A stretch of 64,000 nt of DNA from Paracidobacterium acidisoli. Its GTDB lineage: Bacteria; Acidobacteriota; Terriglobia; Terriglobales; Acidobacteriaceae. Of the stretch, positions 161 through 43,825 are shown in pieces (position 1 is the stretch's first letter; each line of letters begins with the position of its first letter). Made by a program: the position numbers and the translations under genes. The stretch covers positions 612,207 to 676,206 of the forward strand of contig NZ_QVQT02000003.1 in NCBI RefSeq assembly GCF_003428625.2. Direction: 5' to 3'. The notes under the pieces were generated by a model. The model saw only the letters and a program-made list of their open reading frames with translations, did no database searches and was not told where the DNA came from.

Positions 161-844
161 ATGCTGATACTGGTGCTGGGACGCGGGAAGACGGGCAGTC
201 TGGTGACTCAGGTGGCGCGCGAGCATGGACACAGCGTGCGCGTGGTGGGCGAGGAAGAGAATCGCGACGCGATGGCGCTGACGGCGCCGTTTCTGGCGCA
301 GTTCGATGCAGTGATCGACTTCACGACGCCGGAGGCGGTGGTGCGGAATCTGCGCGCGTGCCTGGCCAATGGCGCGCGGGTGGTGGTCGGCACGACGGGG
401 TGGTATCAGCACCTGGACGATATGCGGCAGCTGGCGACGCGGCGCAGTGCGGCCCTGCTGTATGGAACGAACTTCTCGATCGGAGTGCAGGCGCTCTTTC
501 GCGTGGCGCGGGAGCTGGCCCTGGCGGCTCCGCACTACAGCTTTCGCATTACGGAAACTCATCACGCAGACAAGAAAGATGCGCCGTCGGGCACGGCGCT
601 GACGCTGAAGCAGGTTCTGCAGACGGCGAACCCGGCCATCGACGTGGAGATTGTCTCGAAGCGCGAGGGCGACGCGTCGGGGATTCACCTGATCGAGGCG
701 CGGTCGGAGAATGACGCGATCGAGCTGAAGCACGAGGCTTTCTCGCGGCGCGGCTTTGCCGAAGGCGCGGTACGCGCGGCGGAGTGGATTGCCGGGAAGA
801 ACGGGTGCTGGGATTTCCAGGAAGTAGTGGGGCAGCTGGGGTGA
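161..844 (+). CDS. dapB: 4-hydroxy-tetrahydrodipicolinate reductase
   Basis: This cytosolic enzyme reduces 4-hydroxy-tetrahydrodipicolinate with NAD(P)H in the lysine/diaminopimelate pathway. The N-terminal Rossmann strand carries a GRGKTG loop (residues 7-12), and the family signature ETHHADKKDAPSGTA lies near residues 132-146, with the catalytic His and Lys. At 227 residues it is shorter than the usual roughly 270, but both domains are recognisable. The ATG at 161 follows GGAAG and AGAGG at suitable distances. The stop is followed at once by a 15-bp repeat array and then dapA, and dapD lies a little further on, so this is a small dap cluster. Confidence 0.93.
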   Translation: MLILVLGRGKTGSLVTQVAREHGHSVRVVGEEENRDAMALTAPFLAQFDAVIDFTTPEAVVRNLRACLANGARVVVGTTGWYQHLDDMRQLATRRSAALLYGTNFSIGVQALFRVARELALAAPHYSFRITETHHADKKDAPSGTALTLKQVLQTANPAIDVEIVSKREGDASGIHLIEARSENDAIELKHEAFSRRGFAEGAVRAAEWIAGKNGCWDFQEVVGQLG

Positions 845-845
845 A

Positions 846-889
846 GCGGCTAAAAAGCGGTCAGCGAAGAGGCGGCCAGCGGAAAATCG
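846..889 (+). repeat. 15-bp degenerate tandem repeat, locus A, forward arm
   Basis: The region begins right after the dapB stop. Two full 15-bp units, at 858-872 and 873-887, start CGGTCAGC and CGGCCAGC, and a divergent unit precedes them. They share the pattern CGG-N-Y-AGC followed by purines, mostly A. Related units in the opposite orientation lie about 95 bp downstream (983-1052), and the same family recurs at 5354-5443. Confidence 0.6.
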
Positions 890-982
890 AATTGCATCTG
901 TCCTCAAAAATCTATTACCGAATCCATCCATCCTGCCTGCCTTCATCGAAAGCGCCGAAATTCTCAAACTTCGAAACTCCTG

Positions 983-1052
983 CTGCCCGCTTTTCAGCTA
1001 ACCGGACTTTAGCTGTCCGTTTCTTCGCTGCCCGCTTTGTGGCTGGTTTTCG
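983..1052 (-). repeat. 15-bp degenerate tandem repeat, locus A, inverted arm
   Basis: Read on the minus strand this holds consecutive 15-bp units beginning CGGGCAGC, CGGACAGC, CGGTTAGC and CGGGCAG, the same family as at 846-889 and 5354-5443. The two arms of locus A are inverted relative to each other and could fold into a large imperfect stem between dapB and dapA. Confidence 0.6.
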
Positions 1053-1067
1053 ATAGACTTGAACTCG

Positions 1068-1991
1068 ATGGAAGAGATGGGTTGCGGTACGGCACTGATT
1101 ACTCCCTTTCGCGAGGATGGGAGTGTTGACGAGCGGGCGCTCTATGCGCTGACGCAATGGCAGGTCGAGAGCGGCATCGACTGGCTGGTAGCGTGCGGAA
1201 CGACGGCGGAGACGCCGACGCTGAGCGATGACGAGTGGCTGCAGGTGACGCGCATCGTCATTGAAGCGGTTGCGGGCCGGGTTCCGGTCTGGGTGGGATG
1301 CACGCACAATGCGACACGTACGGCGGTGGCCCGGGCGCGGGCCGCGGCGCAGATACCGGGGGTGAACGCGATTCTGACCGCCAATCCCTACTACAACAAG
1401 CCGACGCAGGAAGGCCAGTTCGAACACTTCAAAGCCGTCGCACATGCAGTTGGGCTGCCGGTGGTGCTGTACAACATTCCGAGCCGCGCGGGTGTGAATC
1501 TGGAGCCGGCGACGGTGCTGCGGCTGATCGAGGCGGCTCCCAATATTGCGGGCATCAAGGAATCGAGCGGCAGCCTGCCGCAGATTGCGGAGCTGATTAC
1601 GCAGGCTCCGCGCAGCTTCAGCGTGTATGCGGGCGACGACAATATGGCGCTGGGCGCGCTGGGCGTGGGTGGAGCAGGGCTGGTGTCGGTCGCGTCGAAT
1701 GAGATTCCCGCAGAGATGGCGCAGATGGCCCGCGCCGCGCTGAACAACGACTGGACAAGAGCGCGTCAGATTCACCGTAAGTACTTCCGGCTGATGCAGG
1801 CGAACTTTCGGGAGACCAGCCCGGGGCCGGTAAAGGCGGTGCTGGCGATGATGGGAAAGATCGGGGAGTATTACCGGCTGCCCATGACGCCGGTGAGCTC
1901 CGGCACACGCGCTTATCTGGAGCGGCTGGCGGGCGAGCTGGGTCTGCTGGTCCATGCTCCGCAGGCGGAAGGCGATCTGCGCATGTTTTAG
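1068..1991 (+). CDS. dapA: 4-hydroxy-tetrahydrodipicolinate synthase
   Basis: The enzyme condenses pyruvate with aspartate semialdehyde at the entry to the diaminopimelate branch. It is a TIM barrel. Visible motifs are GTTAETPTL near the N-terminus (the family has GTTGES), NPYYNKP with Tyr at 108-109, LYNIPSRAG, and the Schiff-base lysine in GIKESSG (K164). The length of 307 residues is normal. I chose the ATG at 1068 because the longer frame begins with TTG at 1059. No strong ribosome binding site is visible, and an ATG at 1077 is also possible. The gene sits between dapB and dapD on the same strand. Confidence 0.95.
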   Translation: MEEMGCGTALITPFREDGSVDERALYALTQWQVESGIDWLVACGTTAETPTLSDDEWLQVTRIVIEAVAGRVPVWVGCTHNATRTAVARARAAAQIPGVNAILTANPYYNKPTQEGQFEHFKAVAHAVGLPVVLYNIPSRAGVNLEPATVLRLIEAAPNIAGIKESSGSLPQIAELITQAPRSFSVYAGDDNMALGALGVGGAGLVSVASNEIPAEMAQMARAALNNDWTRARQIHRKYFRLMQANFRETSPGPVKAVLAMMGKIGEYYRLPMTPVSSGTRAYLERLAGELGLLVHAPQAEGDLRMF

Positions 1992-2102
1992 TGCTGGCCG
2001 GACTGGCTGTCCAGGCAGGCGCGCTTTCGGCGCCAGCGCATTCTCTCTTCCGATTGAAAGCATCAGATGTAAACTAAGTGATGCGCGATGCAGCGAGGGA
2101 TA

Positions 2103-2333
2103 ATGCGGACGACTCTTTCCATTGACGACGATGTGCTGCTGGCGGCGAAGGAACTGGCCGGGCAACAGCGCAAAACTGTCGGTGAGGTTATTTCGGCGCT
2201 GACGCGGCAGGCGCTGCGTCCTCATGCGCAGGGCGGCGGTTCGCGCAATGGGGTGCCGCTGCTGCCGGTGCGGACGGATGGAGCTCCGGTTACGCTGGAA
2301 CTTGTAAATCAGCTGCGTGACGAGCAGTCGTGA
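2103..2333 (+). CDS. Ribbon-helix-helix antitoxin, VapB-like
   Basis: The 76-residue protein starts MRTTLSIDDDVLLAAKELA, a typical ribbon-helix-helix N-terminus: a beta strand for operator contact followed by a helix. Its C-terminal part would normally wrap the toxin. The ATG at 2103 has GAGGG just upstream; an earlier in-frame ATG at 2088 is less likely. Its TGA overlaps a GTG that opens a PIN-domain start, the normal vapB-vapC arrangement, but that toxin frame is destroyed (see next entry). The antitoxin is therefore an orphan sitting inside the dap cluster. The family is known to autorepress its operon; whether it still does so here is unknown. Confidence 0.75.
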   Translation: MRTTLSIDDDVLLAAKELAGQQRKTVGEVISALTRQALRPHAQGGGSRNGVPLLPVRTDGAPVTLELVNQLRDEQS

Positions 2334-2434
2334 CGACTTTCCTGCTCGATATCAATGTACTGATCGCGCTGAAGCCTGGTCGTCCAGGCAAGTGCGGCTT
2401 TGCCGCTGCAGCGCTTGATAGACTCGGGTTGTGA
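2330..2434 (+). pseudogene. VapC (PIN-domain toxin) remnant, N-terminus only
   Basis: From a GTG overlapping the antitoxin stop, the frame reads TTFLLDINVLIALKP, which matches the first strand and first acidic residue (Asp7) of PIN-domain RNases. After residue 16 the similarity ends exactly where a REP-like hairpin begins (2374), and the frame stops at 2432-2434. A PIN domain needs about 130 residues and three or four acidic residues, so no toxin activity is expected. The stop overlaps the GTG start of dapD. Confidence 0.7.
2374..2408. repeat. REP-like double hairpin, copy 1
   Basis: The element has GCCTGG-TCGT-CCAGGC (2374-2389) followed by GCGGC-TTT-GCCGC (2394-2406). The 15-base string GCGGCTTTGCCGCTG, preceded by GGCAA, also occurs at 8380-8394 next to another hairpin. 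This copy lies within the broken vapC frame. Confidence 0.55.
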
Positions 2435-3285
2435 CCACTGAAAATCTGAAGACGAAGATCGAAGAGTATTTCTCTGCCGGCGCCTCGGTTGTGGGCAATC
2501 GGGAGGCGATGGCCGCGTTTGAGGAGCTGCGCGAGGCTCTGGAGGCGGGCGCGGTCCGTTCGGCGGAGCCGGATGCGGCGTCTGCGACGGGCTGGCGCGT
2601 GAATGCATGGGTCAAGCAGGGGATTCTGCTTGGCTTTCGCCTGGGGCATCTGGAAGCCTGGGGCGGCAATGACGGCGGTCTGTCGTTTGTCGACAAGCAT
2701 ACCTTTCCGGCGCGGACATTTACGGCGGACGAGGGAATTCGCATCGTGGCCGGAGGGTCGTCGGTGCGGCGAGGGGCGTATCTGGCGAAGGGCGTGATCT
2801 GCGTGCCGCCGATGTACGTCAACGTAGGCGCGTATGTGGACGAGGGAACGCTGGTGGATTCGCATGCGCTGGTCGGCAGCTGCGCGCAGATCGGCAAACG
2901 GGTGCATCTGAGCGCCGCGGCGCAGGTGGGCGGCGTGCTGGAGCCGGTGAACGCCAGCCCGGTGATTCTTGAAGACGACGCGCTGGTGGGCGGCAACTGC
3001 GGTGTGTACGAGGGCACCATCGTGCGCAGACGCGCGGTGCTGGCGGCAGGGACGATTCTGACGCGCGGCACGCCGGTCTACGACGTGGTGAACGGAACGG
3101 TGCTGCGGGCCGAAGGTGAGATGCCGCTCATCATTCCCGAAGGCGCGGTGGTGGTTCCGGGATCGCGCGCGGTGAACAAAGGTAAAGCCGCCGAATGGGG
3201 CGTGAGCGTCTATACGCCGGTGATCGTGAAGTATCGCGATGAAAAGACGGAGCTGAGCGCGGCGCTCGAAGATATTCTGCGGTGA
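2431..3285 (+). CDS. dapD: 2,3,4,5-tetrahydropyridine-2,6-dicarboxylate N-succinyltransferase
   Basis: The enzyme transfers succinyl from succinyl-CoA to tetrahydrodipicolinate, the step after dapB in the succinylase branch. The N-terminal helical domain (about residues 1-110) precedes a left-handed beta helix of hexapeptide turns: [23 protein letters not shown], given here as a run of I/V/L-G-x4 units from about residue 128. The C-terminal [13 protein letters not shown] segment is also typical. The length of 284 residues is normal. The start is a GTG at 2431 overlapping the vapC-remnant stop; no good ribosome binding site is seen, so translation may depend on coupling. Confidence 0.93.
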
Positions 3286-3338
3286 GGTGGGGCGGAAGTT
3301 CCGGTTTCTGTCTGGGTCTCGCGAGCGCGAGACGGAAT

Positions 3339-3393
3339 GCAGATCCCTCCGCTGCGTGAACGCCTGAGGCGTTCACTTCGGTCGGGATGACAA
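3339..3393. repeat. GGTCGGGATGACAA element, copy 1
   Basis: It begins GCAGATCCCTCCG (3339-3351), has a variable centre with a perfect 7-bp hairpin, and ends CTTCGGTCGGGATGACAA (3376-3393). Copy 2 at 3468-3512 has the same two ends around a different centre. Confidence 0.6.
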
Positions 3394-3411
3394 AGGTTGC
3401 GAGATTGTATT

Positions 3412-3437
3412 CCCACGTCTGAAAATCCAGACGTGGG
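3412..3437. repeat. Perfect 10-bp hairpin
   Basis: CCCACGTCTG (3412-3421), loop AAAATC, then CAGACGTGGG (3428-3437), followed by CACCCTTTCATTTT. It resembles the hairpin at 96-127 in its trailing GGGCACC. It could act as a weak terminator for dapD, but its stem is longer and its tail more interrupted than usual. Confidence 0.5.
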
Positions 3438-3467
3438 CACCCTTTCATTTTCTCTGACAAAGAAAAA

Positions 3468-3512
3468 GCAAGTCCCTCCGTCCGGCGGCGGCGGCTTCGG
3501 TCGGGATGACAA
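3468..3512. repeat. GGTCGGGATGACAA element, copy 2
   Basis: It starts GCAAGTCCCTCCG (3468-3480) and ends CTTCGGTCGGGATGACAA (3495-3512), matching copy 1 at both ends but with a G+C-rich centre of different sequence. Confidence 0.6.
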
Positions 3513-3675
3513 TTCTTACTGAAATCGAATTTTACGTAGATTTTTATTCAGATCATCAGAGAAGCCGGTATGGACGATATACGTGAGGGACAGGCGCAGG
3601 GGTCCTGACCGGGAGTGGCGCCGAAGGGGAGTGTGCCCGTGCGGCAGGCACACCTGTTAGCATTGAAGTTTCCAC

Positions 3676-5337
3676 ATGGCCAACGTAAAACTACAGATTA
3701 TTCCCCTGGGCGGGTTAGGCGAGTTCGGCATGAACTGCCTCGCTATCCGCTGGCAGGACGACATTATTGTGATCGACGCTGGACTGATGTTCCCGGAGTC
3801 AGAACTGCTGGGCGTCGACATCGTCGTACCCGATATCACTTACCTGATTGAAAACAGACAGCATGTGCGCGGCATCATTCTGACGCACGGGCATGAGGAC
3901 CATATCGGCGGACTGCCGTGGATTCTCTCCGAGTTGAATGTGCCGGTGTACGGCACCGAGTTCACGCTGGCCTACGTGGAAGGCAAGCTCGAAGAGCACA
4001 AGCTGCTCGACGACACGGAGCTGATCGAGATTGCGCCGGGCGCGAAGTTTACGCTGGGGCCGTTCACGGTCGAGCCGATCCGCGTGACGCACAGCCTCGT
4101 CGACTGTGTGGCGCTGGCGATCGAGACGCCGGTGGGCGTGATTGTGCACACGGGCGACTTCAAGGTCGATCTTTCGCCGCCGGACGGTAAGGCCTTCGAC
4201 CTGCATAAGTTTGCCGAGTACGGCAAGCGCGGGGTGCTGGCGCTGCTGCAGGATTCGACCAACGTGGACCGGCCGGGCTACACGCCGAGCGAGTGGTCGG
4301 TGAAGCCGCGGCTGGACGAGATCTTCTCGCGCACGAAGAAGAAGCTGTTCTTCAGCTGCTTCTCGTCGTCGATCTATCGCATCGGCATCGCGATCGACCT
4401 GGCCTTTCAGCATGGGCGCAAGGTGGCGGTGGTGGGGCGGTCGATGGTGGAGTCGTCGGAGATTGCGCAGGACCTGGGCTATCTCGATATTCCTCCGGGC
4501 ACGCTGATTCACCCGGGGCAGATCGGTGACCACTCACCGGAGAACGTGATGGTGCTGATCAGCGGCACGCAGGGCGAGCCGATGAGCGCGCTGAGCCGCG
4601 CGGCGGTGGACAACCACAAGCATGCGCGGATTGCACCAGGCGACACTGTACTGCTGAGCTCACGCGTGATTCCGGGCAACGAGAAGAGCATCTATCGGGT
4701 GATCGATCACCTCTACCGGCGCGACGCGAACGTGATCTTCGACGATGGAGCTTCGGGGCTGATTCACGTCTCCGGGCACGCGAGCCAGGAAGAGCAGCGG
4801 CTGATGATCAATCTGCTGAAGCCGAAGTTCTTTATTCCGGTGCATGGCGACTATCGGCACCTGAAGAAGCATGCGGACCTGGCGCAGAAGATGGGCGTGG
4901 TCGATCTGGCGCTGGTGATCGAGAACGGCGACATTCTTGAACTGACCGCAGACGACGCGCGGAAGAACGGCAAGGTTACGGCGGGGCGGGTGTGCATTGA
5001 TTCGGGCTCGACGGCGGATGTGGTCGAGGACCTGGTGATTCGCGACCGCAGGCACCTGAGCGAAGACGGCTTTGTGCTGCCGATTCTGACTATCAATAAG
5101 CTGAGCGGCAAGGTGGAGCGCCAGCCGGAGCTGGTAAGCCGCGGCTTTGTAGGCGGCGATGCGGCCCTGATGGAAGGCGCACGCCAGGTGGTGGCGCAGA
5201 CGCTGGAGAATTCGAGCGCCGAAGAGAAGGCCGATTACGGCGTCATCAAGGAAAAGATCCGCATCGACCTGAAGCGGTATATCCAGAAGAACACCAGCCG
5301 CAGGCCGCTGATTATGCCGGTCATTCTGGAAATCTGA
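3676..5337 (+). CDS. rnj: Ribonuclease J
   Basis: This is a metallo-beta-lactamase/beta-CASP ribonuclease with 5' exonuclease and endonuclease activity in RNA maturation and decay. The zinc motif HGHEDH is at residues 71-76; TGDFKVD, the beta-CASP region with SSIYRIG and GRSM, and the late HVSGHAS and PVHGDYRHL motifs follow in order, then a C-terminal domain ending in MPVILEI. The length of 553 is normal for RNase J1/J2-type enzymes. The ATG at 3676 gives the usual start just before the IIPLGGLGEFGMN strand. The gene stands alone between a repeat-rich intergenic region and the 15-bp repeat array at 5354. Confidence 0.95.
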   Translation: MANVKLQIIPLGGLGEFGMNCLAIRWQDDIIVIDAGLMFPESELLGVDIVVPDITYLIENRQHVRGIILTHGHEDHIGGLPWILSELNVPVYGTEFTLAYVEGKLEEHKLLDDTELIEIAPGAKFTLGPFTVEPIRVTHSLVDCVALAIETPVGVIVHTGDFKVDLSPPDGKAFDLHKFAEYGKRGVLALLQDSTNVDRPGYTPSEWSVKPRLDEIFSRTKKKLFFSCFSSSIYRIGIAIDLAFQHGRKVAVVGRSMVESSEIAQDLGYLDIPPGTLIHPGQIGDHSPENVMVLISGTQGEPMSALSRAAVDNHKHARIAPGDTVLLSSRVIPGNEKSIYRVIDHLYRRDANVIFDDGASGLIHVSGHASQEEQRLMINLLKPKFFIPVHGDYRHLKKHADLAQKMGVVDLALVIENGDILELTADDARKNGKVTAGRVCIDSGSTADVVEDLVIRDRRHLSEDGFVLPILTINKLSGKVERQPELVSRGFVGGDAALMEGARQVVAQTLENSSAEEKADYGVIKEKIRIDLKRYIQKNTSRRPLIMPVILEI

Positions 5338-5353
5338 GAAGGCAGTTGAGGGG

Positions 5354-5443
5354 CGGCTAGCTGAGATCCGGTCAGCTAAAAGGCTGTCAGCTAAAAATCG
5401 GTTAGCGGAAGAACGGGCAGCGGAAAAACGGTCAGTGTAGCGG
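5354..5443 (+). repeat. 15-bp degenerate tandem repeat, locus B (six units)
   Basis: Six units follow in exact 15-bp phase: 5354-5368, 5369-5383, 5384-5398, 5399-5413, 5414-5428 and 5429-5443. Representative units start CGGTCAGCTAAAAGG, CGGTTAGCGGAAGAA and CGGGCAGCGGAAAAA. It is the same family as at 846-889 and 983-1052. It lies between the RNase J stop and the next gene. Confidence 0.7.
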
Positions 5444-29091: not shown

Positions 29092-31370
29092 AGCTCTCGC
29101 AGGTGTTCGGTATCAGCCCGGAGTCTGCGGCGCGGCTTGACTACGCGCAGGTGCGCACGGTTCAGGATCTTGCCGAGGCCGCCGATCTGAAAGAGCTGAG
29201 CGAGCGCAGCAATCTTTCGCTCGACCTGCTGGAACAATGGCAGGGGACGGCGCGAACCAAAGTGGCTGCTGCCCGCCGGCGGCGCAGGCCGCTGGCCATT
29301 CTCGTCGCGGTCACCGCCATTCTGGTCGTCACAATTGCCGTCCGGTCTTACAGGACCCACAGGCTTAACAAGGCGGTCGTCCACTATAACCGCGGAAACG
29401 AGCGATTCGAGAAAAAAGACTACGCCGACGCCATTACCGAATACCGGAAGGCTCTGGCTCTGTATCCCGATTTCGCCAACGCCCACTATAGCCTCGCCGC
29501 AGCCCTGAACAACAAAGGCAACTACGACGGCGCTGTCGCTGAGTACCGGAAGACGCTGGCCATGAAGCCCGGTTACTCCGAGGTGCCGGAGCTGTTTCCC
29601 GGTTATGGGGAGGTTCAGGCTCACTTCAGTCTCGCCAACGCTCTGAACAACAAAGGCGACTACGACGGCGCTGTCGCTGAGTACCGGAAGGCGCTGGCGC
29701 GAGATTCCGATTACGCAGACGCCCACTTCGGCCTCGGCAATGCCCTGAACAATAAAGGCGACTATGACGGCGCTATCGCCGAGTACAGGAAGGCGTTGCT
29801 CCTGGATTCCGGCGACAAGAGTGAAATCCACCTCAACCTCGGCAACGCGATGTACAACAAAAACGACTACGACGGAGCTATCGCAGAGTACCGGAAGGTT
29901 CTGGCGCTGAAGCCAAAGGATGCCGATGCGCACAGCAACATCTGCAATACCCTGAACCAGAAAGGCGACTACGACGCCGCCATCGTCGAGTGCAGAAAAG
30001 CGCTGCTCCTTAACCCCGATCACGCTTATGCCCACAGGAATCTGGGCATCGCCCTGGGTAACAAAAGCGACCACAAAGGGGCTATTTCCGAGTACCGGAA
30101 GGCGCTGGAGCTGAATCCCGACGACGCCTACGCACACAACAGCCTTGGCTATGCCCTGTATCAGAAAGGCGACCTTGACGGCGCCATTGCCGAGTATCGA
30201 AAGGCGCTGGCTCTGAAGCCCGACTTTGTCATCGCTTATGACAATCTCAGCATCGCTCTGGACGATAAAGGCGACTACGACGGAGGCATTGCCGAGTACA
30301 GGAAAGCGCTGAGGCTGAAGCCTGACGACGCCTACGTGCACAACAGCCTCGGCTACGCCCTGTATAAGAAAGGCGATCTCGATGGCGCTGTCGCCGAGTA
30401 CCGGAAGGCTCTGGCTCTGAAGCCCGACTTCGCCCTGGCTCATGACAATCTCGGCATCGCCCTGAGCGAGAAAAGCGACTACGCCGCCGCCATCGCCGAA
30501 TACCGGAAGGCTCTGGCTCTCAAACCCGATTACGCCGCCGCCCACAATAACCTCGGCTACGTCCTGTACAGCAGAGACGACGATGACGAGGCTATCGCTG
30601 AGTACCGGAAGGCGCTGGCCCTGGATTCCGGCGAGGCTCTTTACCATATCAACCTCGGCGATGCCCTGGGCGACAAAGGCCGCTATGACGAAGCCATTGC
30701 CGAATACCGGAAAGTGCTGGCTTTGAAGCCGGACGCCGCCGACGCGCACACCAGTCTCGGCGATGCCCTGGACGGCAAAGGCGATCACGACGGCGCCATG
30801 GCCGAGTATCGAAAGGCTCTGGCTCTGAAGCCCGACGACGCCTACGCCCACAAAAACATCGGCTACGTTCTGAATGAGAAAGGCGACCACGACGGCGCTG
30901 TCGCCGAATACCGGAAGGCGCTGGCTTTGAAGCCGGACGAGGCCGATGCCTGTATCAACCTTGGCGACGCTCTGTACGACAAAGGCGACCACGAGGGTGC
31001 TGTCGCCGAGTACCGGAAGGCGCTGGCCCTGAAGTCAGACGAGCCTGTTTACCACATCAGCCTCGGCGATGCCCTGGACGGCAATGGCGATCACGACGGA
31101 GCCATCGCCGAATACCGGAAGGCGCTGACTCTGAAGCCCCGCAAGGCCATCTATCACCTCATTCTCGGCCGGATACTGGGCGATAAGGGCGATTACCGGG
31201 AAGCCATCGCCGAGTACCGTAAGGCGCTGGCTCTGGAGTACGGCCTTGACCTGCCCCACTACGGCATCGGTCTGGCGCTGGCAGGCATGGGCAGAAGGCA
31301 GGAAGCTGCGCGGGAATTTCAGAAGGCGAACCGCCTCGATCCCGGTTTGAAGCCGCAGCCGCCGAAATAA
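29088..31370 (+). CDS. Membrane-anchored TPR protein with N-terminal helix-hairpin-helix-like domain
   Basis: The 760-residue protein begins with about 60 residues resembling a DUF4332-type helix-hairpin-helix domain (QVFGISPESAARLDYAQV, TVQDLAEAADLKELSERSNL). A basic RRRR stretch and one TM segment near 67-86 follow, then a long array of 34-residue TPR units (about 107-745). I count 19 units with the core G-D-Y-D-G-A-I-A-E-Y-R-K-A-L-A-L-K-P-D, many almost identical. The near identity extends to the DNA (102-bp period), pointing to recent expansion by recombination. It overlaps the upstream membrane protein gene by ATGA. A protein-binding scaffold on the outer face of the inner membrane is the likely role. 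Confidence 0.85.
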   Translation: MKLSQVFGISPESAARLDYAQVRTVQDLAEAADLKELSERSNLSLDLLEQWQGTARTKVAAARRRRRPLAILVAVTAILVVTIAVRSYRTHRLNKAVVHYNRGNERFEKKDYADAITEYRKALALYPDFANAHYSLAAALNNKGNYDGAVAEYRKTLAMKPGYSEVPELFPGYGEVQAHFSLANALNNKGDYDGAVAEYRKALARDSDYADAHFGLGNALNNKGDYDGAIAEYRKALLLDSGDKSEIHLNLGNAMYNKNDYDGAIAEYRKVLALKPKDADAHSNICNTLNQKGDYDAAIVECRKALLLNPDHAYAHRNLGIALGNKSDHKGAISEYRKALELNPDDAYAHNSLGYALYQKGDLDGAIAEYRKALALKPDFVIAYDNLSIALDDKGDYDGGIAEYRKALRLKPDDAYVHNSLGYALYKKGDLDGAVAEYRKALALKPDFALAHDNLGIALSEKSDYAAAIAEYRKALALKPDYAAAHNNLGYVLYSRDDDDEAIAEYRKALALDSGEALYHINLGDALGDKGRYDEAIAEYRKVLALKPDAADAHTSLGDALDGKGDHDGAMAEYRKALALKPDDAYAHKNIGYVLNEKGDHDGAVAEYRKALALKPDEADACINLGDALYDKGDHEGAVAEYRKALALKSDEPVYHISLGDALDGNGDHDGAIAEYRKALTLKPRKAIYHLILGRILGDKGDYREAIAEYRKALALEYGLDLPHYGIGLALAGMGRRQEAAREFQKANRLDPGLKPQPPK

Positions 31371-43183: not shown

Positions 43184-43825
43184 ATGCAGGACGATCGCAG
43201 ACTTTTCGCAAGCAGTGACGATGAATTCGAGCCGGAATCTTTCGACGATTCCGAAGAGCTGGATAGCGGCTTTGATGAGGACGAGGAAGAAGAGGAAGTC
43301 TCTATCTCGGTTTCGTCCGATGATGACGATATAGAAGATGAAGAGACGGAAGGCGTCGTCGTTGCCATCATCGAAGAGCCGATCGAGGACACCGTGGCGG
43401 TGCCCGCGGTGAGCAAAGCACCGGCAGGGAAGAAAGCCGCGAAGAAGGCAGCCAAAAAAGCGCCGGCCAAAAAAGCTGCAAAGAAAGCAGTGGAGAAGGC
43501 TCCCGCGAAGAAGGCCGCGAAAAAGGTTTCAGCCAAAAAAGCCGCGAAGAAAGCTCCGGCTAAAAAGGCCGTAAAGAAATCCGCTGCGAAGAAAAGCAGT
43601 GGCGCTCGAAGTGGCGGACGGGCTGCAAAGAAATCTGCAGCCGGTAAAAAGAGCGTCGTCAGTAAAAACCCAACCAAGAGAGGTCTTACTTTGGCAGTGA
43701 AGAAAGCAGCAAAGAAGGCAGCAGTGAAGAAAGCAGTGAAGAAGGCTCCCGCGAAGAAGGCAGCCAAGAAGGCCCCGGCCAAGAAAGCGGCCAAGAAGGC
43801 AGCAAAGAAGGCAACGAAGAAGTAG
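43184..43825 (+). CDS. Histone H1-like protein with acidic N-terminal half
   Basis: The 213-residue protein is bipolar. Residues 1-85 are extremely acidic ([20 protein letters not shown]), and residues about 90-213 are lysine/alanine repeats of the type [12 protein letters not shown] that recall H1-like and HU-tail nucleoid proteins and bind DNA or RNA. A short non-repeat segment ([11 protein letters not shown], near 160) splits the basic half. The ATG at 43184 has GGAGG 9 bases upstream and matches the promoter at 43071. The acidic half could shield the tail or recruit partners. A strong terminator follows. The closest alternative is a low-complexity linker of a larger gene, but the frame is self-contained. 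Confidence 0.82.

What the first reader, a model, noticed from the sequence alone, without database searches (positions are those of the whole stretch)
846..5443. A 15-bp-periodic degenerate tandem repeat family at two intergenic loci
Directly seen: units of exactly 15 bp with the pattern CGG-N-Y-AGC-purines occur six in a row at 5354-5443, and as two inverted arms (846-889 and 983-1052) around the dapB-dapA gap. Units differ from each other by several bases, yet the period is kept. They stop sharply at gene ends and have no protein-like pattern that requires them. Inference: a lineage-specific dispersed repeat that copies or recombines in whole units, or a multi-site protein-binding array. 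Inverted placement at one locus and direct at the other suggests mobility.
Basis: partly seen in the sequence, partly recalled or inferred. Interest (0 to 1): 0.6.

Follow-up and report, generated by a model that had tools for sequence, protein, structure and literature searches.

The report
Convergent repeat arms around S23 genes
Short 15-letter repeats, lined up in facing arms right after genes, are scattered through a group of soil bacteria and may be gene-less copies of a little-understood element that, in its full form, carries the gene for an S23 protein of unknown function.

Summary
The 15-bp units match 123 times in the window's genome against 7 for a reversed control, at 26 listed loci, and 11 of 12 species of a related genus carry them. 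Neighbouring arms on opposite strands always converge (26 of 26); outer ends lie a median 8-12 bp behind same-strand stop codons; lengths change by whole units between species. New lead: 3 of 26 two-armed elements enclose a PF05635 (S23, 23S rRNA intervening sequence) gene, and 79 of 99 fetched PF05635 loci from several phyla lie between inverted flanks, often tandem heptamers, against 35 of 792 mismatched pairs. A distant GGGAATC-repeat genome shows the same pairing. At pheS-pheT the genes overlap in 13 of 18 relatives, but an S23 element splits them here. Best reading: the window arrays are gene-less members of an S23-element type, hairpin-capable and tolerated at gene junctions. Against it: no arm co-evolution, no general target duplication, and array-rich genomes without a matching S23 gene.

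The parts
845..887 (+). plus arm of the dapB-dapA element: one partial and two good 15-bp units directly behind the dapB stop codon
888..974 (.). core between the two arms; no called gene, no PF05635 remnant found
975..1049 (-). minus arm of the dapB-dapA element: three good and two degenerate 15-bp units, facing the plus arm
5339..5443 (+). one-armed array behind the RNase J stop codon: six 15-bp units (5354-5443) and a degenerate one before them
161..844 (+). dapB, gene left of the two-armed element
   Evidence: PF05173, PF01113
1068..1991 (+). dapA, gene right of the two-armed element
   Evidence: PF00701
3676..5337 (+). RNase J, gene left of the one-armed array
   Evidence: PF22505, PF17770
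5454..6506 (+). PLP-dependent enzyme (threonine dehydratase-like by eye), gene right of the one-armed array
   Evidence: PF00291

Best explanation
The 15-bp arrays are the arms of a dispersed intergenic element with two convergent arms of degenerate tandem units. They are the ORF-less form of an element type whose full form carries a PF05635 (S23, 23S rRNA intervening sequence) gene between such arms. Shown: dispersal, convergence, position at gene ends, length change by about whole units, PF05635 genes between the same arms in several genomes, and a strong general association of PF05635 genes with inverted flanks of short repeats. Inferred: transcripts across both arms fold into a long hairpin, as in the intervening sequences of 23S rRNA that RNase III cuts out. 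Also inferred: the S23 protein, given in trans, once spread the ORF-less copies to tolerated sites at gene junctions, and units then turn over by slippage or unequal exchange. One-armed loci would be halves that lost or never gained the partner arm.
For: Genome-wide family, 123 matches against 7 in the control. 26 of 26 opposite-strand arm pairs converge. 42 of 42 arms in 20 stretches of this genome and 95 of 99 in 65 named Acidobacteriaceae loci are intergenic, while arms in the 44 loci of other taxa are mostly inside genes (21 of 26). The outer end lies a median 12 bp (n 27) or 8 bp (n 56) behind a same-strand stop codon. 3 of 26 two-armed elements in these loci hold a PF05635 gene. Six of 30 fetched PF05635 loci have 15-bp arms on both sides by profile; further ones are L084, L284 and L288. 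Inverted flanks at 79 of 99 fetched PF05635 loci against 35 of 792 sampled mismatched pairs and 8 of 300 random places. Random genes: 4 of 250, two of them PF05635 genes; short genes 1 of 150. In G691 a PF05635 gene with GGGAATC units on both sides lies between accB and accC (named by eye), and two other loci there are convergent GGGAATC arrays without such a gene. PF05635 genes with 15-bp arms cluster in a tree (3 changes, 7.2 when shuffled, 1 of 500 shuffles as low). At pheS-pheT the genes overlap by 4 bp in 13 of 18 relatives but are split by a PF05635 element in this genome (507 bp), G071 and G096. At dapB-dapA about 38-64 bp separate the last dapB codon from dapA in 5 relatives, 226 bp here (window coordinates).
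Against: Only 1 of 26 array loci listed for this genome holds a PF05635 gene. Array-rich genomes G140, G166 and G174 show one PF05635 gene each, none with 15-bp arms by profile. Arms of one locus are no more alike or complementary than arms of different loci (0.397 against 0.421; duplex -1.089 against -1.091 per nt). No direct repeats flank 26 two-armed elements. Array-only cores hold no PF05635 remnant at E 0.001. The dapB-dapA element folds only weakly better than shuffled (z -1.77), the one-armed array not (z -0.62). One gene without Pfam match also lies between 15-bp arms (L130). 20 of 99 PF05635 loci show no inverted flanks. G128, counted as empty at dapB-dapA, has by eye two 14-bp repeats resembling the unit there. 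No mobility event was observed.
Confidence: 0.5

Rival explanations
1. The arrays are primary and independent. They arise and spread as simple intergenic repeats, and S23 genes are passengers that settle in the loop of existing inverted arrays, as they settle in helix loops of 23S rRNA.
For: Most arrays lack a PF05635 gene; array-rich G140, G166 and G174 lack one with 15-bp arms; one other gene (L130) also lies between 15-bp arms.
Against: Different PF05635 genes of one genome have arms of different units, e.g. L188 and L211 in this genome or L193 and L207 in G128 (by eye), so they do not simply enter one dispersed family. At pheS-pheT no array without gene was seen in 18 relatives, apart from what look by eye like leftover 8-bp arms in G166.
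Confidence: 0.22
2. The arrays are selected as mRNA 3' ends: hairpins or purine-rich tracts behind stop codons that stop transcription or protect mRNA, and they grow by slippage. The S23 link is secondary.
For: Outer ends sit a median 8-12 bp behind same-strand stop codons. Between genes in tandem, one-armed loci of the named genomes are in gene sense 34 times and antisense 10 times. The RNase J 3' side carries units in this genome and, by eye, in G158 and G188.
Against: The orientation of gene pairs with arms is close to that without (own 17/8/2 against 59/18/18, named loci 48/14/9 against 224/46/45 tandem/convergent/divergent), and some arms lie upstream of starts. In this genome one-armed tandem loci are 5 sense and 5 antisense. 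The direct array folds no better than shuffled.
Confidence: 0.15
3. The units are a multi-site binding array for a DNA- or RNA-binding protein, for instance a nucleoid protein.
For: Conserved core CGG-N-YAGC in 187 units and a nearly constant 15-bp period.
Against: 15 bp is not a whole number of helical turns (general knowledge); the rule of convergence and the enclosed S23 genes are not explained. Binding was not testable here.
Confidence: 0.08
4. The repeats are the low-complexity tail of a translated protein.
For: Some frames stay open through the units (inspection).
Against: 137 of 141 arms in this genome's stretches and the named Acidobacteriaceae loci lie between called genes; both window arrays begin behind stop codons.
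Confidence: 0.01

Closest known systems
GGGAATC heptamer repeats of Xanthomonas (PMC4692102, passages read)
   Same: Mostly intergenic tandem arrays; many convergent pairs (70 and 75 in two species, as the paper states); array length differs between species while the pair type is usually kept.
   Different: Unit of 7 bp that can form G-quadruplexes, here 15 bp. The terms S23, 23S rRNA and four helix do not occur in that paper; some searches found an S23-family gene inside such arms in one GGGAATC-bearing genome whose name is not told.
Intervening sequences (IVS) of 23S rRNA with S23 gene, e.g. Coxiella (PMC4990558, passages read)
   Same: S23 gene in the element, inverted repeats, two or three tandem heptamers before the gene with copy number varying between strains; called selfish, mobile origin discussed.
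   Different: IVS lie inside 23S rRNA and are cut out by RNase III. The elements here lie between protein genes, and most lack the gene.
TAACTGA intergenic heptamers of Beggiatoaceae (PMC4679880, passages read)
   Same: Dispersed short tandem units in intergenic regions.
   Different: Mostly ahead of start codons, nearly all direct, one inverted repeat reported.
Foldback elements of eukaryotes (recalled, not from a call)
   Same: Inverted arms built of short tandem subrepeats around varying cores.
   Different: Eukaryotic; no homology tested.

Membership tests
23S rRNA intervening sequence (IVS) | lies inside a 23S rRNA gene | tested here: not met
   window loci lie between dapB and dapA and behind RNase J; Rfam at the gathering score finds only two tRNAs in the window
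23S rRNA intervening sequence (IVS) | inverted ends around the core | tested here: met
   convergent arms at 845-887 and 975-1049; 26 of 26 opposite-strand pairs converge; the locus at 5339-5443 has one arm only
23S rRNA intervening sequence (IVS) | S23 (PF05635) gene in the core, in the ORF-bearing type | tested here: not met
   absent in both window loci; present at one array locus of the same genome, L046:10738-11100
23S rRNA intervening sequence (IVS) | cut out of the transcript by RNase III | not testable with these tools
   no RNA data
GGGAATC-type convergent heptamer repeats | 7-bp G-rich unit | tested here: not met
   unit is 15 bp, about CGG-N-YAGC-purine-rich
GGGAATC-type convergent heptamer repeats | intergenic convergent pairs | tested here: met
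MITE | target-site duplication at the ends | tested here: not met
   flank direct repeats same 5.19 against different 5.22 over 26 elements; the element ends are fuzzy, so short duplications could be missed
MITE | fixed terminal inverted repeats of a transposase family | tested here: not met
   arms vary in unit number (2 to 13) and sequence
REP/BIME | 20-40 bp palindromic unit | tested here: not met
   unit is a 15-bp direct repeat
REP/BIME | RAYT transposase in the genome | not tested
   no search made
CRISPR | repeats separated by unique spacers | tested here: not met
   units abut without spacers

The most novel reading that the evidence does not exclude
S23 (PF05635) genes with their inverted arms of short tandem repeats form a widespread class of mobile elements in several bacterial phyla. 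They insert at gene junctions, sometimes exactly between an overlapping stop and start codon, and the S23 protein, of unknown function, is their mobility or arm-binding factor. Dispersed convergent repeat families such as the 15-bp arrays here and the GGGAATC heptamers of Xanthomonas are their gene-less offspring, and the IVS of 23S rRNA is one special landing site.
Probability: 0.35. Interest if true: 0.85.

Novelty: new variant of a known kind. Interest (0 to 1): 0.68.

Why it matters
S23 proteins have no known function (as PMC4990558 states) yet PF05635 genes occur in 46 of 99 sampled Acidobacteriota genomes, and families of convergent intergenic repeats have been described without a cause. 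The association found here ties the two together in several phyla and makes both testable: does the S23 protein act on its arms? If so, IVS elements, heptamer families and these 15-bp arrays would be one phenomenon.

Tried and rejected
Coding tail: rejected, arms are intergenic. Rfam family: none at the gathering score except two tRNAs. Divergent arms: none among neighbouring arms within 600 bp. Shared core sequence: 21 cores share nothing substantial except the three that hold PF05635 genes and two short fragments of 15 and 19 bp. Arm co-evolution: tested and not found. Target-site duplication: tested over 26 elements and not found. At pheS-pheT the right side in this genome reads CAATACGCATGA where empty junctions read CAGTTCGCATGA or close to it, which hints at a duplicated target in this single case (by eye; G071 and G096 do not show it). 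PF05635 remnants in array-only cores: none; of four PF05635-like places in 85 loci three lie between arms and one (L110) has no arm near. Preference for convergent gene pairs: weak or none.

Literature: searches, seen as capped listings with titles and starts of abstracts (for instance 15 of 3,167), showed no paper that links S23 genes to dispersed short-repeat arms. Passages of PMC4990558, PMC4679880 and PMC4692102 were read, no whole paper.

Limits and dropped rows: gene calls for searches come from my own codon-based script, not from a published gene finder. One search listed only part of its 123 matches, and listed two-mismatch single matches at C1:591924, C1:723280, C1:756723 and C8:761444 were taken as chance and not fetched. 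The 99 PF05635 loci are the best-scoring ones returned as loci, not every match. In one search L251 and nine low-scoring or partial loci and the S. bohemicum locus L246 were not tested; L251 was left out for short flanks. In one search L324 (RNase J) and L341 (pheS) were not given to the script and L344 gave no junction; the automatic scan missed the units behind RNase J in G158 and G188, which are read by eye. The first dapA table used a wrong frame and was redone; G180 and G128 were mis-oriented and their rows are not used; L222 was placed wrongly and was corrected. In the tree, L200 was read on the wrong strand and L205 is very divergent; two of the eight rows labelled 15-bp (L194, L197) were labelled by eye.
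Full report
What is there. The window carries two loci of 15-bp units. A two-armed one fills most of the dapB-dapA gap (plus arm 845-887, minus arm 975-1049), and a one-armed one lies behind the RNase J gene (5339-5443). Gene names are from Pfam. Both loci start directly behind a stop codon.

It is a genome-wide family. A dimer pattern with up to two mismatches matches 123 times in the 5.0-Mb genome against 7 for the reversed control. In 20 fetched stretches I listed 26 array loci, with 187 units in the final profile, core CGG-N-YAGC followed by purine-rich bases. Among 200 genomes of the family (this one included), 49 had at least one match with up to one mismatch. Twelve had 20 or more, in four genera; most of the others had one or two, close to the control. 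In one of those genera 11 of 12 species have matches, 16 to 146 each. Exact trimers in named genomes fell in 109 stretches: by title 65 of Acidobacteriaceae, Silvibacterium bohemicum among them, and 44 of scattered other taxa. Arms in the latter are mostly inside genes, 21 of 26, so I read those as chance.

Architecture. Neighbouring arms of opposite strand within 600 bp always face each other: 15 of 15 in this genome and 11 of 11 in the named loci, with 1 and 4 same-strand neighbours and no divergent pair. Arms are intergenic by my gene calls (42 of 42; 95 of 99). Their outer ends lie a median of 12 bp (n 27) or 8 bp (n 56) behind a same-strand stop codon, or 30 bp (n 15) or 48 bp (n 25) from an opposite-strand gene. 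Cores differ from locus to locus. Arms of one locus are no more alike than arms of different loci, so units seem homogenised genome-wide and not within a locus.

Turnover. At orthologous sites of related species the arrays differ in length by about whole units or are missing (alignments A to E). From the last dapB codon to dapA there are about 38, 57, 60, 64 and 45 bp in G180, G128, G118, G010 and G066, against 226 bp here by the same measure. Of the 18 loci in that call six more had 358-1216 bp between, six showed no dapA in the stretch, and G140 had 153 bp. G128 has by eye two 14-bp repeats like the unit at that site, and in G158 dapB is followed by a four-unit minus array. Behind RNase J, units are seen by eye in G158 and G188; the other 17 of 19 loci showed none in the stretch printed.

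The S23 link. One core of this genome, between pheS and pheT (L046; the two named by eye), holds a gene of PF05635, the 23S rRNA intervening sequence protein, whose nearest solved relative by sequence is 2gsc (E 5.5e-25). In the own and named loci together, 3 of 26 two-armed elements hold such a gene (L046, L075, L084). A search of 20 genomes for PF05635 gave 30 loci, of which six have 15-bp arms on both sides by profile. By eye most of the others lie between inverted arms of other short units, often heptamers. I tested this with a local alignment of the upstream flank against the reverse complement of the downstream flank, with a cut-off set at the 95% point of mismatched pairs. Above it are 24 of 30 in Acidobacteriaceae, 27 of 28 in other Acidobacteriota, 12 of 19 in other phyla and 16 of 22 in a further set, together 79 of 99, against 35 of 792 sampled mismatched pairs and 8 of 300 random places (earlier runs). 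Of 250 random genes four exceed it, and of 150 short genes one: two of the four are PF05635 genes, one (L130, also the short one) is an unrelated gene that itself lies between 15-bp arms, and the last (L144) was not identified. Clear tandem repetition in a flank is found at 39 of 99 loci, 19 of them with period 7, against 8 of 300 random places, five of which have period 15. PF05635 genes were found in 46 of 99 genomes of the phylum and in 8 of 30 genomes, mostly of other phyla.

A distant parallel. Passages of PMC4692102 report GGGAATC heptamers in Xanthomonas with 70 and 75 convergent pairs. I searched 369 genomes of the class of a Steroidobacteraceae record; one, G691, holds four exact GGGAATC units in a row. 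Its single PF05635 match, frameshifted by eye, lies between accB and accC (named by eye) with GGGAATC units on both sides, and the two other loci looked at are convergent arrays without such a gene. The Coxiella IVS paper reports two to three tandem heptamers before the S23 gene, differing between strains (PMC4990558, passages).

Insertion at a junction. pheS and pheT overlap by 4 bp in 13 of 18 relatives. In this genome, G071 and G096 a PF05635 element lies between them (507, 574 and 443 bp). G166 has 165 bp with what looks by eye like leftover 8-bp arms, G066 has 125 bp and G116 619 bp without such arms. In the weakly supported tree the protein of this genome pairs with one from G194, and those of G071 and G096 are unresolved. 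Either several insertions at one junction or precise losses are needed; both speak for an element that comes or goes cleanly.

Interpretation. The window arrays work most likely as gene-less hairpin-capable arms of S23-type elements, tolerated at gene junctions. What is shown is architecture, distribution and association; folding in the cell, processing by RNase III and mobilisation by S23 are inferred. The main doubts are the many arrays without S23 genes, array-rich genomes without a matching S23 gene, the lack of arm co-evolution and the lack of a general target duplication.

Noticed in passing
window 3340-3520: Another dispersed palindrome-like repeat (CAGATCCCTCCGCTGC...GGTCGGGATGACAA, and ...CCCACGTCTG...CAGACGTGGGCACC); similar text lies in the cores of L041 and L051.
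   Followed up: no
window 2088-2410: Small ORF (2088-2333) that looks like an antitoxin, followed by what looks like a truncated PIN-type toxin start; by eye, no Pfam match for the first.
   Followed up: partly
window 29622-31237: Long run of 102-bp (34-codon) repeats, TPR-like by eye.
   Followed up: no
window 43429-43822: Repeats with 12- and 27-bp periods, lysine/alanine-rich and histone H1-like by eye.
   Followed up: no
L130:6048-6530: A 160-codon ORF without Pfam match lies between 15-bp arms in place of an S23 gene; its end has a Cys-rich stretch.
   Followed up: partly
L211 (G000:C15:42927-43241): A second PF05635 gene of this genome with arms of 7-bp CAGGGTG-like units by eye; a third match, G000:C8:284790-285092, has an inner stop codon.
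   Followed up: partly
L325 (G116 pheS-pheT): The end of pheS (CAGTTCGC.TGA) stands twice within 30 bases before further sequence between pheS and pheT.
   Followed up: no
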